Part shown: one piece after another, positions 3,236-50,430 of the stretch
How the letters are laid out: the number at the start of each line of letters is the position of its first letter
Position numbering within the stretch: the first letter of the stretch is position 1
Source: Parasitella parasitica
Lineage: Eukaryota > Mucoromycota > Mucoromycetes > Mucorales > Mucoraceae
Assembly (NCBI GenBank): GCA_025201805.1
Contig: MU619273.1
Span: 165,329 to 229,328, forward strand
DNA length: 64,000 bases
Reading direction: 5' to 3'
Made by a program: the position numbers and the translations under genes
The notes under the pieces: generated by a model
Databases searched by the model: none
Seen by the model: the letters and a program-made list of their open reading frames with translations, nothing else
Told to the model about the DNA's origin: nothing

Positions 3236-3643
3236 TCATTTGGTCTGTGCCAAAGTTCTCAACCTATTTTGTACAACACAAAAAAAAAAAAAAATTAGCA
3301 TAAATTCATCGGTTCCTCCTGGTGATAATTGTATACTTGCATTACGTATGATACCAGGATTAAGATCCCAGAAAAGATCTTCTTGTTGTCTTTGTTCAGG
3401 CCGCCATAATGGATCATCATTTGGATTATACAATCTGCCAGGTGGTGTATTATTCATCTGAAGAAAATTGGTTTGCTCTCGTTTTTTTTGTTCTTTGATA
3501 CGTTGAGGAACGTTTCCATTCGTTAATCGACGAGCAAGGCCCGGATAAAGATCATATTGTGTGTGTGTCGTATAATGCGCATAATATACTCTGGGGGTTG
3601 TTTCCAGTTGTACGGTTTTCTGAGAGGATGTGTTAGCAGACAT
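3236..3643 (-). CDS. Small unknown protein (100-135 aa)
   Basis: Start chosen at MSANTSSQ (3643), because residues encoded upstream are a phenylalanine run read from a T-rich leader. The first 100 residues look coding: polar, Pro/Arg/Gln-rich, with PRVYYAHYTTHTQYDLYPG and PPGRLYNPNDDPLWRPEQ. The last 35 residues of the unspliced frame contain a phenylalanine run from a 14-T tract followed by TACAAAATAG, which looks like an intron 3' end. If a GTAATG donor near 3345 is used, the protein ends shortly after NPGIIR with a stop at 3259. I cannot decide between the forms and recognise no family. Confidence 0.5.
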   Translation of the reverse strand: MSANTSSQKTVQLETTPRVYYAHYTTHTQYDLYPGLARRLTNGNVPQRIKEQKKREQTNFLQMNNTPPGRLYNPNDDPLWRPEQRQQEDLFWDLNPGIIRNASIQLSPGGTDEFMLIFFFFCVVQNRLRTLAQTK

Positions 3644-45186: not shown

Positions 45187-45214
45187 AAAAAAAAAAAAAA
45201 AAAAAAAAAAAAAA
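45187..45214. repeat. 28-nt poly(A) tract at element edge
   Basis: Uninterrupted A run between the 5' end of the Apq12-like gene and the tandem repeat that opens the recombinase/helicase locus. Confidence 0.85.
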
Positions 45215-45225
45215 GGAAGATTAAG

Positions 45226-45304
45226 GCCTGGCTTTTTTTTTTCTTTTCACGCTTTTGCCTGGCTTTTTTTTCTTTTCACGCTTTTGCCTGGCTTTTTTCT
45301 TTTC
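45226..45304 (+). repeat. Tandem repeat, three units of GCCTGGC-T(n)-CTTTTCACGC
   Basis: Three near-identical units of about 27-30 bp (GCCTGGC, T-run, CTTTTCACGCTTTT), the last truncated. One unit in inverted orientation precedes the exon-1 copy at the other side of the locus (about 49970-50005). So the unit belongs to the upstream region of this gene family, or to a terminal inverted repeat. Confidence 0.8.
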
Positions 45305-45315
45305 AGGATTGAAGC

Positions 45316-45546
45316 ATGTTTGTAATTTCAAGAGAACAAGCAATTTGCCTATTTTATGCGGTACCGTATAATAAAGAAAATGCAGAGAAGTACACCAAGA
45401 CGATTGACGAAATGGAGGATATTACGATTTGTTACTCAGAAAATCCTAAACAACCATTTCTTTGTTCATTAAAATCAATGATTGCCAATCCATCAGAATA
45501 CAATGCAATTTTGAAGAATAACAGTCAAGAAAAAGAAGAGAGCTAA
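45316..45546 (+). pseudogene. Solo, truncated copy of the recombinase-like gene's first exon
   Basis: A 76-codon frame beginning MFVISREQAICLFYAVPYNK. The minus-strand gene at 49968 begins MFVISREQAICLFYAIPYNK; similarity continues for about 70 residues (NAEKYTK, IDEMED, then a diverging tail with the shared QEK). The tail ends at a stop without the donor splice site or downstream exons seen in the full copy. Only 46 bp separate its stop from the convergent end of the interrupted gene (45593). Best read as a decayed inverted partial duplication. It could still encode a short protein, since no stop interrupts the similar region. Confidence 0.65.
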
Positions 45547-45592
45547 TAGTAATTTTAAATCGATGATAATAATACTTTATACAAAATAAAAA

Positions 45593-46299
45593 CTAGTTTT
45601 TAGACCTATGATACAAATTTTCCCGACTATCGAATTTGAATAAGGCTTTTGGCTCTATTAATTCTTCCTGGCAATTGATAACGTGAACTTGATTATCGTG
45701 AATAATGGTATCAATAATTATTTTTTGAATATTACTATTTTCACTAAAACCAAAAGTTAATTAATTGCTTTGTTTATAGTATGTTACATACCGCAGAAAC
45801 GCCTCTAAATCAGTAAAGTTGGTGGTGAGGCCCGCTGAATCTATTATAACCAAAGCTACTTTGTTTATTTTTTGAATATCTTGAAGTAGATCTGCAAAAA
45901 AGTCAGTATTATAGTAAATGAAAATTGTATGCTATTTAAGATATTAAATACCTTGTGCATTGCCATTGATACCTGATAGCTGATCAATAATCGCATTTTT
46001 TTTTTATATCTCTTTTTTTAAATGGTGTACCAGCATTACAGCTAACAGTGACATAAACCTTCTGCGCTAAGGACCTCTCTTTCAATCCAAGAACCATAGA
46101 TTGAAGGCATTTGGTCACTTTCTCGTTATCCGCAGTCGTTTTTGACTTTCTACAATAGCCAATAATAAAATATCCTTGTATTTTAAGATCCATTATATAT
46201 TGTTGGTATTGTATTGGTAGATTAACTATGTCTTCTATAAGTGCATCTACAACGCGATAATTGATAAGAAAAATAGAATTAATAATTTGTGCGTTAAAC
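45593..46299 (-). CDS. Recombinase-like gene, C-terminal exons (partial, one frameshift)
   Basis: Minus-strand segments 46299..45952, 45891..45792 and 45743..45593, with introns GTATTT...TTTGCAG and GTATGT...GTTTTAG. The core reads YFIIGYCRKSKTTADNEKVT, then LKERSLAQKVYVTVSC, KKINKVALVII-type strands and SAGLTTNFTDLEAFL. The GYxRxS start, a mid-domain strand pair and an LTTN helix recall the catalytic domain of serine recombinases/resolvases, though the match is weak and I have seen this family only as lineage-specific repeated proteins of Mucorales. An A10 run near 46007-46016 must lose one base for the frame to continue into NAIIDQLSGI, so this copy is frameshifted or mis-sequenced. The 5' side is lost in the 390-N gap. 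Confidence 0.5.
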
Positions 46300-46689
46300 N
46301 NNNNNNNNNNNNNNNNNNNNNNNNNNNNNNNNNNNNNNNNNNNNNNNNNNNNNNNNNNNNNNNNNNNNNNNNNNNNNNNNNNNNNNNNNNNNNNNNNNNN
46401 NNNNNNNNNNNNNNNNNNNNNNNNNNNNNNNNNNNNNNNNNNNNNNNNNNNNNNNNNNNNNNNNNNNNNNNNNNNNNNNNNNNNNNNNNNNNNNNNNNNN
46501 NNNNNNNNNNNNNNNNNNNNNNNNNNNNNNNNNNNNNNNNNNNNNNNNNNNNNNNNNNNNNNNNNNNNNNNNNNNNNNNNNNNNNNNNNNNNNNNNNNNN
46601 NNNNNNNNNNNNNNNNNNNNNNNNNNNNNNNNNNNNNNNNNNNNNNNNNNNNNNNNNNNNNNNNNNNNNNNNNNNNNNNNNNNNNNNNN
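46300..46689. other. Assembly gap (390 N)
   Basis: Run of N inside the recombinase-like/helicase locus. Long frames reported across it on either strand are artefacts of the Ns. Confidence 0.99.
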
Positions 46690-49418
46690 TCGTTTGGAGA
46701 CATAGAGATCTTTTCAATTTCTTCGGAAGAAGGTTGAGGTTTTCTTTGTATGCTTGTCATCATTCCTAAATGGAGTATATTATCCAAATTTGGCTCTTTC
46801 CTTGGCATCTTATTAAGTTTGACATCCCATTTCATCAATTTCCTTCTATCGGAAACAAGTGTTGGTTCCGCTATGATGCTAGTTGAATTTACTTCCAATT
46901 CAGATTTTGTGCGTTTTGTTGATATTTCATTATTTTTGTGTTCATCGCATGAATTTAAATTGTAGGGTGGCAACTTGTTTTTAAGCGTGGGATATCCCGA
47001 TTTTGAGTTATCTGGCTCCAAGTTAGGGGTTATTTTATTTGTTATGTCTGCCGAAAGAGAATAATCGTTTTTCTTTCTCTTTGCAAAATTTAATTCGGTC
47101 GTCTTCCCCCCCTCAAAAGCATTATTTAACAAATTGCGCTCATGTGGAAACGATGGAACGGAAGAGAGAATCGAGGATTCGGATGAAATGAGATTAGACA
47201 CATGAAGAGGAAAGGTATGAAGAACTGAGGCTGAAGTATTACTGTGAAAATAATTGAATGAGGTAGTTGGACTACGAGTTGGTCTTGAAGAGGAAGAATT
47301 AGAAGTCGTGTCACGAAGAAGACGTCGATTAGAAGTCTCGGCATTATTAGCAAAAGCCTTTGTAAATATTCGCAGAAACGAGTTCAAAGTGGAATTATCG
47401 AAAATAGGACAACAAGAAGCAAAAAGAGAACGCGACGAATAGTTATCAAGAATAGTGTTATTAATAGAATTATTATCAATAAAATTACTGTTCGAATCAA
47501 TATCTACGAAGATGTTATTCCAGCTATCAAATTCAGGATCTTCTGGAGGAGGACCACGGGCAACACTAACGAGAAAATCGAATGTTACATCTATGACAGA
47601 GTCATCATCATCGTCTTCGTAAACGGAAGCAGGAGGAATGATTGGGTTAATGACTGTTGGAGCGTTGAAATTTACAACAGTTTCGGTCGGATGTTCCAAG
47701 CCATAGAAACTCAAGGCATCTTCATTGTTCATTGCATTGAGATCTGCAGCCGATTCCTCAACTATTGGTTGTAGCCATCCACCTGTTGGCTCGTTGTTGT
47801 AGGTAGAGTGATTCCAAGCATAGAAAATGTTATTGAACAATTGCGTCTCGTCTGCTTGGGGAAAAACCATTGAATTGTAGTCTTCTAACCACCATTGATC
47901 CAGATCAGAGGAAAGAAGGAACTCCTGGTATGGTGGCAAGGGCGAGTTGCTGGTAGGCGCGACTTCGGTGATGATAGGTGTAGTAGGTTCTAGATGCGTT
48001 TCCTCAATTGAAACAGTGGTGATGTCAGAGTAGGATGAAATTTGGGAGAAATTGAGAGAGTTTCGTACTAGGCTGTTTGATTCAAACCCGCTGGGGTAGT
48101 AACGTTTCAGCAAGGCTGCGACGTCTTGCGGACATCTGCGAGACAACGTACGGTAGATCGATTCAGTAACATGGAAGTACTTTTGATGACTTGTTACGAA
48201 AGTGCAGTGTCTATTAAGGAATGGGATCTGTCTACTGTCACCGAAAAGAATGATTTTTCCGTTCGGGTTCAATCGAGCGATCGCGGCATAGAGAGCACCA
48301 GCGTGAACCATGAGAGCCTCGTCAACAAGGACGTTGTTACAACCATCTGTGAACACAGCGCGACGGTGCATAAGATATGAATCGATAGTGCGGATGTTTG
48401 ATGCTAATTGTTGCTGCAAGGCTGCGTTGTCATCATCTTTAGATGAGAGTAACTGGAAAATCTCTCTGCGCGTTTCCTCTGCCGTGCTGGACGTCTCGCA
48501 AAGTACGATATCTCCGGGCTTGTAAGTGTGCACGATCTCGTACGTTTTCCCGGCGCCGGGTACACCTTCGATAAGAGTTGCGGAGAAAGGGCGGTAGAAA
48601 AACTTCGGATGTAAGTGTGACACGGCTGACGAAATACTGCGAGCGTTGAATACTTCGAAAGAACCGCAGACAAAGACGATGTCAGAACGGGGCTGGTTCT
48701 TTGGTTCGACGAACACCAGACCTTCTGGTCCCTTCTTGTCGCGCAAGGAGACACCGCGAGGCACCCCGAGCTTGACAAATCGCCCCTGCATGTCCATAGC
48801 TATAGAGTAAGTCGCAGAAGTTTTGATGTAGGATGAAGAGACGTAAGCTAACATAGAGTCGGCCACTGTTCCATCCGGGAGAAGTCCGTCGGAATTAGGT
48901 CTAGAAACTCGAAGGAAGTTCGGGTTATCTTTGCCGTTTTGGTACAGGACTAGTTTGTCCATAGGCTTCGGTTTGCCGTTGACAGTGCAATAATCAAAAA
49001 CTTGTTTAGCTTGGTTCTCGACACATTGCGCTTCGTAGGCCTTGTACTTAGCGTACTCTACCGTAGCGGCAATCGCAGCGGCAGGCAGTTTAGCACGGAA
49101 GGCAGGGTTGAGCTGTTGGCAACGCACTTCCAACTCGCATGGTAAATCGCTCGGGATGGTATCAGCGAGTTTGAAACGGTGAACCGGTGTTCCGTCGGGT
49201 TCCGTTGGAGTACGGTTGTCAAAGGTACGCCAGTCAGCAGACTGGTTGATGAGTTGGTCTTCGGCGACCACGTCCGACGACTTCCGAACGTTGGTGGATT
49301 CGGTAGCGTCGGGAAGGGACTCGTCGTCATCATCAGTAGAGGAAGTACTCTGTCCCTGATTATCTAATAAGGCCGTAGATCCGTAAAATTGATCTTGATG
49401 TTGGGCTGGAATCCTCAT
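46690..49418 (-). CDS. Endogenous viral element: (+)RNA-virus superfamily 1 helicase-like open frame
   Basis: One uninterrupted minus-strand frame from MRIPAQHQ (49418) to the gap, about 909 codons. The helicase is at about residues 220-440: Walker A EGVPGAGKTYEIV, Walker B VDEALMVHAGAL, motif III GDSRQIPFLNR, and a downstream TLSRRCPQDVAALL block corresponding to the RRTLRCP-type segment of virga-like helicases. These are the hallmarks of alphavirus-like (Martellivirales) replicase helicases. No methyltransferase or polymerase motif was seen, so this is a fragment. The first 200 residues are acidic then helical; after about residue 460 the frame is acidic and Asn/Ser-rich, and its origin is unclear (viral, or the host gene's middle). 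Base composition is higher in G+C than the flanks from about 48000 to 49400. No intact virus is implied. Confidence 0.8.
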
Positions 49419-49968
49419 GTTTTCTTTTAACACTTGCAGTTGTGAAATTCAACTTTTGTGTTCTACACCAATTTGTGAATTTTGAAAAGTTATCTTCTTT
49501 AAACAACGAAGTGTATTCCCAGACCTGTGATAATATTGTATTCATTGATAAAGCTTTACATTCATACAAAACAGACTCTGGATCTTCTGAAAGATAAGCT
49601 ATATCCAGGAATTGTTTTAATTGTGGAGTAGTTTCTATAAAATGAAAAAAGTCAACCAGTGGAAGATAAAAGCATTAACTGTAACAAGTACCAATTTCTA
49701 TTTTGCGATTTCCGACTTCTTGATTGCTTTGGCCAATTTCTTCATCAGTTTTTTCTTGTCGGCTTCCAGATGGGTATAAATGAATATCAAATGAGTTGGC
49801 ATAAATTATTCTTGTACAAAGAAGTCTTGGTTTTTTCTGGTTTTTTGTATAGCAGACGTCGACATCCTCCATTTCATCAATCTTCTTTGTGTACTTTTCT
49901 GCATTTTCTTTATTATATGGTATAGCATAAAATAGGCAAATTGCTTGTTCTCTTGAAATTACAAACAT
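49419..49968 (-). CDS. Recombinase-like gene, N-terminal exons (interrupted)
   Basis: Minus-strand exon 1 49968..49692 starts MFVISREQAICLFYAIPYNK. Exon 2 begins at 49634 after a 57-nt intron (GTACTT...TTTATAG), giving KIEIETTPQLKQFLDIAYLS across the junction, then LSMNTILSQVWEYTSLFKED and LNFTTASVKRKHE. Exon 2's own frame stops at 49360, while the viral helicase frame begins at 49418 in a different phase. So the host frame is broken at the junction near 49420. Together with the exons at 45593-46299 this looks like one gene split by the viral segment. Function unrecognised apart from the resolvase-like C-terminal part. Confidence 0.55.
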
Positions 49969-50000
49969 GTTTAAAGCGTGAAAAGAAAAAAAAAGCCAGG
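49850..50000 (-). repeat. Inverted repeat partner of 45266-45425
   Basis: Read on the minus strand, GCCTGGC-T(n)-CTTTTCACGC and the first about 100 bp of exon 1 are nearly identical to the plus-strand sequence at the left edge. The two arms are inverted about 4.5 kb apart. Outside the arms (left poly(A), right ACGCGCGTC...) the sequences diverge. Confidence 0.7.
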
Positions 50001-50040
50001 CAAATTTACGCGCGTCAAGAAAAAAGCTTGTTTGTGTCAA

Positions 50041-50430
50041 TGAATCAAAAAGGTCTGTGTGACAACCTGCACTCGAGAAAACGTATGAATTCTTGTGATT
50101 TCACTTAATTTCATGTACTCGATGACTAGAGATTAAAGAATATCTATTACTGGAAGCCAAAAAAAAAAAAAAAGGGTTGCTTCTAACGAATCTAATAATT
50201 GCTAATATCTTATCAATGGTAACTTTCGCTGCAGACAAGTAAGCAAAGTAAATCTATTCATGTTGATTTGGTACCATTTATTGACATCGAAATAATATTT
50301 TATATAATGATTTATCATCATTCAAACCTAATCAAACTTCAAATGGTCCCCTGGACCCTTTTATATACATACGTCGCTACTTTCTAAATTATAGACACTG
50401 GGCTAGGCTTGACCATAATTAGCGGTTTTT

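What the first reader, a model, noticed from the sequence alone, without database searches (positions are those of the whole stretch)
45593..49968. RNA-virus-type SF1 helicase embedded inside a fungal recombinase-like gene
Sequence shows: a minus-strand gene with N-terminal exons at 49692-49968 and about 49420-49634 and C-terminal exons at 45593-46299. Between them is a roughly 900-codon open frame with GVPGAGKT, VDEA and GDSRQIPF motifs. Known: these motifs in this order mark alphavirus-like replicase helicases of (+)RNA viruses. Inference: a viral cDNA integrated into the gene. The frame has stayed open for at least 2.7 kb, which suggests either recent capture or selection on the product.
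Basis: partly seen in the sequence, partly recalled or inferred. Interest (0 to 1): 0.92.

Follow-up and report, generated by a model that had tools for sequence, protein, structure and literature searches.

The report
Virus helicase fossil with retrotransposon seam
A piece of a plant-virus-like RNA virus gene has been copied into DNA and dropped into a decayed repeat gene of what looks like a fungus, and a short scrap of a retrotransposon at its edge suggests which kind of enzyme copied it.

Summary
A stop-free minus-strand frame (919 codons, 46691-49448; 909 from the ATG at 49418) carries an alphavirus-like SF1 helicase core (Pfam Viral_helicase1, 76 bits; its four solved-structure matches are viral-type helicases), lacking motifs IV-VI. 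It lies inside a spliced gene, and the same genome has an uninterrupted copy of that gene on contig C3, differing at 12 of 1632 aligned bases. The right insertion edge is therefore exact: 49382/49383. The 39 bases at that edge (49344-49382) equal positions 420-458 of a 464-bp LTR repeated in the genome, its presumed U5. The order is gene | U5 scrap | virus. I read this as a recent non-retroviral endogenous viral element: a retrotransposon reverse transcriptase switched from its own RNA to viral RNA, and the cDNA was end-joined into the gene. The host frame stops inside the U5 scrap, so there is no simple fusion. The open frame needs no selection (neutral chance 0.06-0.31, higher if younger). 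A second, decayed helicase fossil lies on contig C140. Not settled: a tail of about 440 codons without known relatives, the left edge (390 N), expression, the exact virus, and the 'recombinase' label, which no test confirmed.

The parts
49692..49968 (-). Exon 1 of the interrupted multi-copy gene
   Evidence: In phase, GT..AG intron; near-identical in C3 copy L024
49383..49634 (-). Exon 2 of the interrupted gene up to the insertion edge
   Evidence: Right flank 49383-50001, 619 columns, 98.9% identical to C3; homology stops here
49344..49382 (+). 39-nt LTR scrap = LTR positions 420-458 of 464 (presumed U5), lacking the last 6 nt
   Evidence: 39/39 identity; 10 exact copies among 14 other places within 3 mismatches in the fetched loci; LTR has TATAAATAG at 252, AATAAA at 392 and exact 5-bp target duplications in 6 of 12 full-length copies, counted by eye
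46691..49418 (-). 909-codon open frame of the insert (ATG 49418 to the gap edge)
   Evidence: No stops; no second full copy found in the genome
48014..48575 (-). Alphavirus-like SF1 helicase core, motifs I-III
   Evidence: Pfam PF01443 76.2 bits, profile 2-163/228; solved replicase/nsP2-type helicases E 1e-12 to 1.4e-8
48576..49343 (-). Presumed viral sequence upstream of the helicase core (no family match of its own)
   Evidence: Same frame, GC about 50% against 39% for the window
46691..48013 (-). Tail of about 440 codons in the same frame, unknown origin
   Evidence: 46692-48044 tested: 0 Pfam, 0 NCBIfam, 0 PDB; no second copy found; no homologue found (saturated)
46300..46689 (.). Gap of 390 N hiding the left insertion edge
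45593..46299 (-). 3' part of the interrupted gene
   Evidence: Left block 45257-46299, 1053 alignment columns, 6 substitutions and 3 gaps against C3
45257..50001 (.). Extent of the repeat unit shared with C3 (insert excluded), bounded by GCCTGGC...GCCAGGC
45293..45493 (+). Inverted partial copy of the gene's own 5' exon at the other end of the unit
   Evidence: 201-nt arms, 79% complementary to 49791-49991

Best explanation
A recent non-retroviral endogenous viral element. RNA of a virga-like/alphavirus-like (+)RNA mycovirus was copied by the reverse transcriptase of a resident LTR retrotransposon. Synthesis began at the LTR element's primer site, copied about 45 nt of U5 (39 remain), then jumped to viral RNA, probably the viral minus strand because the sense helicase follows the antisense U5. 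The chimeric cDNA was joined into a decayed, multi-copy gene by end-joining, not by integrase. It is now most likely an unselected fossil. Shown: helicase type, uninterrupted paralogue, right edge, LTR identity and order. Inferred: the template switch, the template strand, end-joining, lack of function, and that the host is a fungus.
For: Viral type: PF01443 76.2 bits. The 4 of 177,635 PDB sequences at E<=1 are labelled 'Replicase large subunit' (two), 'helicase' and 'Protease nsP2'; that the third is also viral is recalled. Insertion: C3:258097-259780 holds the same gene with 42 bp where the window has the gap plus 2.7 kb. Recency: 12 substitutions in 1632 aligned bases between the two copies, and the frame is open. 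LTR edge: 39/39 identity to LTR 420-458. It is the only stretch of the insert for which the genome DNA search found other copies; 0 expected in 100 shuffles of the window. The scrap starts 23 nt after AATAAA, where U5 could begin. It lacks the terminal 6 nt, is followed directly by the gene, and shares 1 nt at the seam. RT source: 57 RVT_1 matches in the genome, a lower bound. Repetition: a second helicase fossil on C140 (24.4 bits, cut-off 21). Precedent: LTR-virus hybrid cDNAs and an LTR-flanked EVE in mosquito cells (PMC6797480, passages); [quoted passage not shown]
Against: PF01443 alone is not specific: its control rang in 9 of 14 prokaryote genomes, and the general AAA_30 model also just passes its cut-off (28.3 against 27). 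The left edge is unseen (390 N). No relative was found in the protein collection (17 scored only the 7997 candidates sharing most words) or in IMG/VR contigs, so the virus is not placed by phylogeny. No RdRP_2 or Vmethyltransf match in the genome (no positive control). The tail does not fit a simple contiguous viral copy, because helicase motifs IV-VI should follow there. No full-length LTR element or primer site was found. U5 rests on TATA and AATAAA positions alone. 6 of 12 full-length LTR copies lack an exact target duplication.
Confidence: 0.78

Rival explanations
1. Viral cDNA made by another route (for example a non-LTR RT) was joined separately to a broken LTR fragment during double-strand-break repair; the U5 scrap is filler and not the primer end of the cDNA.
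For: The scrap is short, lacks the LTR's last 6 nt, and there is no integrase-type junction to the target; repair filler from repeats is common (recalled).
Against: The piece is the part of the LTR next to the expected primer site and begins about where U5 should begin, a coincidence for random filler.
Confidence: 0.2
2. A captured gene: the composite frame (viral helicase front plus tail) is expressed and kept by selection as a new host protein.
For: 909 codons without a stop; the tail is open where 23.6 stops are expected by composition; chance of staying open if neutral and as old as the duplication is 0.06-0.31.
Against: Motifs IV-VI missing, no second full copy, host frame stops in the scrap, no expression data; recency alone explains the open frame.
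Confidence: 0.1
3. A retrotransposon-borne viral helicase of the kind described in insects (helicase fused to a retroelement polyprotein).
For: Retroelement sequence directly abuts the helicase; such fusions exist in insects (PMC4686597, PMC6338049, passages).
Against: No other copies found; no RT domain in the frame; only 39 nt of LTR; no LTR pair seen.
Confidence: 0.03
4. Assembly artefact joining unrelated pieces.
For: A 390-N gap inside the locus; the flanking gene and the LTR are repeats.
Against: Insert, U5 scrap and right flank are one gap-free stretch; only 1 nt is shared at the right seam, so a repeat overlap is unlikely to have caused a mis-join there; both gene halves are in C3 order and orientation.
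Confidence: 0.05

Closest known systems
[quoted passage not shown] arrhizus genomes (PMC11351042; sections 11 and 13 read whole)
   Same: SF1 helicase of virga-like type in a fungal virus; in that virus Met and Hel sit on a segment without RdRP; its RdRP has 30-64% identical proteins encoded in R. arrhizus shotgun sequences
   Different: No sequence comparison could be made here; the paper says the mechanism of endogenization is not well understood and describes no retroelement junction in the sections read
LTR-virus hybrid vDNA and LTR-flanked EVEs in Aedes cells (PMC6797480; passages)
   Same: LTR retrotransposon sequence fused to cDNA of a (+)RNA virus, then found in the genome
   Different: Insect; EVE-derived piRNAs there; here a likely fungus, one 39-nt U5 scrap, small RNAs untested
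IAP-virus recombination in mouse cells, Geuking et al. 2009 (seen only as a reference in PMC2805616; content recalled)
   Same: Retrotransposon RT switches to an exogenous RNA virus template and the product integrates
   Different: Laboratory infection in mouse, not a natural heritable fossil
Viral SF1 helicases in insect retrotransposon proteins (PMC4686597, PMC6338049; passages)
   Same: Tobamovirus-like SF1 helicase acquired with a retroelement; the first paper also mentions cucumoviral and pomoviral helicase sequences close to plant LTR retrotransposons
   Different: Complete helicases fused to LINE/LTR proteins and multi-copy; here truncated, one copy found, no RT
Nodavirus-like element captured by a retrotransposon in the nematode Bursaphelenchus (PMC5177903; listing only)
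   Same: RNA-virus gene associated with a retrotransposon in a genome, as the title states
   Different: Other virus and host; details not read
RdRP-type EVEs of Phycomycetaceae and Mortierellales (PMC7482067, passages; PMC12548735, passages) and yeast totivirus-derived genes (PMC2805616, passages)
   Different: RdRP or capsid genes of other viruses; no retroelement junction seen in those passages

Membership tests
Alphavirus-like SF1 helicase (Pfam Viral_helicase1) | Score over curated cut-off and Walker A, Walker B and motif III in order | tested here: met
   76.2 bits against 21; GVPGAGKT, LVDEA, GDSRQIPF. Control of the same model rang in 9 of 14 prokaryote genomes, so the score alone is not specific.
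Alphavirus-like SF1 helicase (Pfam Viral_helicase1) | Motifs IV-VI (complete core) | tested here: not met
   Profile ends at 163 of 228; no QGET, TRH or SRH string in the 909 codons. It is a fragment.
Alphavirus-like SF1 helicase (Pfam Viral_helicase1) | Closer to viral than to cellular SF1 helicases | tested here: met
   4 of 4 PDB matches at E<=1 are replicase/nsP2-type (one labelled only 'helicase', its viral origin recalled); NCBIfam RecD 20.3 bits of a 310-bit cut-off; AAA_30 28.3 bits of 27. No tree with RNA viruses could be built.
Non-retroviral endogenous viral element | RNA-virus sequence covalently joined to host DNA with an empty site known | tested here: met
   Right edge gap-free; empty paralogue on C3. 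Left edge hidden by N.
LTR-retrotransposon-mediated viral cDNA | LTR element sequence directly abutting viral sequence | tested here: met
   39 nt LTR 420-458
LTR-retrotransposon-mediated viral cDNA | Integrase-type ends: full LTR terminus and 5-bp target duplication | tested here: not met
   Last 6 LTR nt missing at the right edge; a duplication cannot be seen because of the gap
Retrotransposon-borne viral helicase (insect type) | Helicase fused to an RT-bearing, multi-copy element | tested here: not met
   No other copy found, no RT domain in the frame
Serine recombinase/resolvase (the interrupted gene) | Match to Resolvase family | tested here: not met
   PF00239 0 matches in the genome although the control rang in 10 of 14 genomes; no match over any cut-off for a 217-aa relative; profile search of PDB gave no recombinase, its one row under 1e-3 being a designed protein with no stretch significant on its own
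Virga-like mycovirus | Met and RdRP of the same lineage, phylogenetic placement | tested here: inconclusive
   No PF00978 or PF01660 in the genome (no positive control); no relatives found to place it

The most novel reading that the evidence does not exclude
In this organism LTR retrotransposons routinely copy RNA-virus replication intermediates (viral minus strands) and bank them in repeat loci, a counterpart of insect LTR-virus vDNA memory, and this locus and the C140 fossil are two entries; the composite 909-codon frame may in addition be a new expressed protein. (No LTR was found at the C140 fossil in the 9 kb examined, which counts against the general form.)
Probability: 0.08. Interest if true: 0.88.

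Novelty: new variant of a known kind. Interest (0 to 1): 0.62.

Why it matters
How RNA viruses without reverse transcriptase get into fungal chromosomes is described in print as not well understood (PMC11351042). Here one locus gives base-level evidence: a resident LTR's presumed U5, then virus, in a site whose uninterrupted twin is still in the genome and only 0.7% different. If it holds, it extends LTR-RT-mediated viral cDNA capture, known from insects and mouse cells and hinted at in plants (PMC4686597), to a probable fungus. None of the rows listed by my ten literature searches reports an LTR-virus junction in a fungal genome, judged from titles, abstract starts and the passages read. Four listings were cut short (45: 20 of 38; 47: 15 of 18; 51: 12 of 16; 68: 15 of 260), so this is not proof of absence.

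Tried and rejected
Protein searches of the helicase and of the tail found no relatives; 17 and 41 scored only about 8000 candidates sharing most words. IMG/VR scans by protein and by a motif III DNA pattern found nothing; I infer that this collection holds few RNA viruses. Other pieces of the virus in the genome (RdRP_2, Vmethyltransf) were not found (no positive control). I first took the 39-nt repeat for a transposon terminal inverted repeat or a subtelomeric element, because many copies lie near contig ends. Target duplications, TATA box and AATAAA showed an LTR. The idea that the tail is copied from a host gene was dropped because no donor was found in the assembly (only best candidates are scored there). 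A Resolvase identity for the interrupted gene was tested and not met. Copia-type RT was sought and not found, without a positive control. Linking the LTR to a full-length element failed: no flank is shared between the full-length copies, and the RT-bearing frame on C11 lies antisense to the nearby LTR. The LTR was also sought beside the C140 fossil and not found. Two further pieces around the C140 fossil had no viral family match.
Full report
What is there. The window is G000:C37:165329-229328 of a 30.7-Mb assembly in 232 contigs. The minus strand carries a stop-free frame from 49448 to the edge of a 390-N gap at 46690: 919 codons, 909 from the ATG at 49418. The motifs are at 48543-48566 (GVPGAGKT), 48315-48329 (LVDEA) and 48219-48242 (GDSRQIPF).

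The helicase is of viral type. Pfam gives Viral_helicase1 at 76.2 bits (cut-off 21) over profile positions 2-163 of 228; the general AAA_30 model also just passes its cut-off (28.3 against 27). Viral_helicase1 by itself is not specific, since its control rang in 9 of 14 named prokaryote genomes. The comparison with solved structures separates better: of 177,635 distinct PDB sequences, the 4 at E<=1 are labelled 'Replicase large subunit' (two, 1e-12), 'helicase' (6e-9) and 'Protease nsP2' (1.4e-8). That these are tomato mosaic and chikungunya virus proteins is recalled. In NCBIfam the best model is RecD at 20.3 bits, far below its 310-bit cut-off. The core stops after motif III, so this is a fragment. 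G+C is about 50% in the helicase part and 28-33% in the adjoining parts of the interrupted gene.

The site before the insertion is still in the genome. A DNA search of the genome with 45200-50100 found C3:258097-259780, which matches 45257-46299 and 49382-50001 in the same order and orientation. Between the two blocks C3 has 42 bp (the block starting at 49383) where the window has the gap plus 2.7 kb. The blocks differ by 12 substitutions in 1632 aligned bases, plus four gaps. The right edge of the insertion is therefore 49382/49383, inside exon 2. The target belongs to a family: its third exon matches 11 places in the genome, the window's and C3's included. It seems to have been decaying already: the C3 copy has a frame break in exon 1, and compared with two relatives both copies appear to lose the frame in exon 3. 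I could not confirm that it is a recombinase. PF00239 found nothing in the genome while its control rang in 10 of 14 genomes. A 217-aa relative from C207 and a three-member profile gave no recombinase match; the one profile row under 1e-3 is a designed protein without a stretch significant on its own.

The edge carries a retrotransposon scrap. Bases 49344-49382 recur elsewhere: within three mismatches at 14 other places in the loci I fetched, 10 of them exact. They are positions 420-458 of a 464-bp repeat; a search with it gave 35 rows, including the query copy and the window's own piece, some rows being parts of one copy. The repeat starts TGTCATG and ends CTGATA, has TATAAATAG at 252 and AATAAA at 392, and 6 of 12 full-length copies have an exact 5-bp target duplication, counted by eye. 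I read it as an LTR, mostly solo. Positions 420-458 lie just after the poly(A) signal and stop six bases short of the LTR end, so they are probably U5. For no other part of the 2.7-kb insert did the DNA search return another place (it skips simple repeats and scores best candidates only). In the window itself only this one match exists, with none expected in 100 shuffles.

How it most likely formed. On the window's minus strand the order is exon 2, antisense U5, sense virus. A tRNA-primed reverse transcriptase copies U5 first (textbook LTR cycle, recalled). A jump to another RNA at that point gives this order, and since the DNA then reads in viral sense, the template would be the viral minus strand. 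The missing six LTR bases and the single shared base at the seam fit end-joining rather than integrase. A source of the enzyme is at hand: 57 RVT_1 matches. Shown are the order, identity and edge; the switch, the strand and the joining route are inferred. [quoted passage not shown]

What it does now. The host frame, spliced through exons 1 and 2, stops inside the U5 scrap, so no host-helicase fusion is made in that form. The helicase frame would need its own start at 49418. If the insertion is as old as the split of the two copies, about 10 substitutions and 0.8-2.5 frame-breaking indels are expected in it, and the chance of an open frame without selection is 0.06-0.31, higher if it is younger. 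So the open frame can be explained by youth; selection is neither needed nor excluded.

What does not fit neatly. After about residue 469 the frame continues for some 440 codons to the gap. G+C at third positions falls from 0.51-0.61 to 0.26-0.33. There is no family or PDB match (451 codons tested), no other copy found in the genome and no relative in the protein collection (about 8000 candidates scored). Helicase motifs IV-VI should stand there if the viral copy were contiguous. It may come from another part or segment of the virus, or from a rearranged cDNA. I cannot tell.

A second fossil. C140:47826-48173 encodes 116 codons with 35% identity over 68 residues to the window helicase and scores 24.4 bits for Viral_helicase1 (cut-off 21). 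The match covers profile positions 73-150, around motif III. Translations of the surrounding DNA are broken by stops and, as I read them, frame changes. Against it: two neighbouring pieces had no viral match, no PDB match supports it, and no LTR was found within the 9 kb fetched there. Capture has thus probably happened at least twice, from different viruses, but the LTR route is seen only at the window locus.

Comparison with the known. A virga-like virus of Rhizopus microsporus carries Met and Hel on one segment and RdRP on another, and its RdRP has 30-64% identical proteins encoded in R. arrhizus shotgun sequences (PMC11351042, sections 11 and 13). EVEs of RdRP type are known in Phycomycetaceae and Mortierellales (PMC7482067, passages; PMC12548735, passages), and totivirus-derived genes in yeasts (PMC2805616, passages). 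Insect retrotransposons carry complete viral SF1 helicases (PMC4686597, PMC6338049, passages), and the first of these papers mentions viral helicase sequences close to plant LTR retrotransposons. The present locus fails the tests for the insect class (no other copy found, no RT). It works like LTR-primed viral cDNA capture, and it is a non-retroviral EVE by the features that could be tested, with the left edge untested.

Limits. No RNA virus collection was on hand, so there is no tree. The RdRP_2 and Vmethyltransf searches had no positive control.

Noticed in passing
C140:47826-48173 (L003:1360-1707, L037): A second alphavirus-like helicase fossil, 35% identical over 68 residues to the window's, over the Pfam cut-off at 24.4 bits, with broken frames around it.
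   Followed up: partly
L024:1397-1626 and 3253-3482 (C3): The uninterrupted gene copy sits at the centre of a palindrome with 230-nt arms, 99% complementary, that reach beyond the repeat unit.
   Followed up: no
window 45293-45493 and 49791-49991: The repeat unit carries an inverted partial copy of its own first exon at its other end, and GCCTGGC/GCCAGGC at both limits, like a mobile element.
   Followed up: partly
L025-L036, L038-L067: 464-bp LTR family, mostly solo; several copies lie at or within about 2.5 kb of contig ends (C1, C4, C11, C29, C124, C136), perhaps because full-length elements did not assemble.
   Followed up: partly
window 46691-48013: A stretch of about 440 codons in frame with the helicase has no known relative in the collections searched.
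   Followed up: partly
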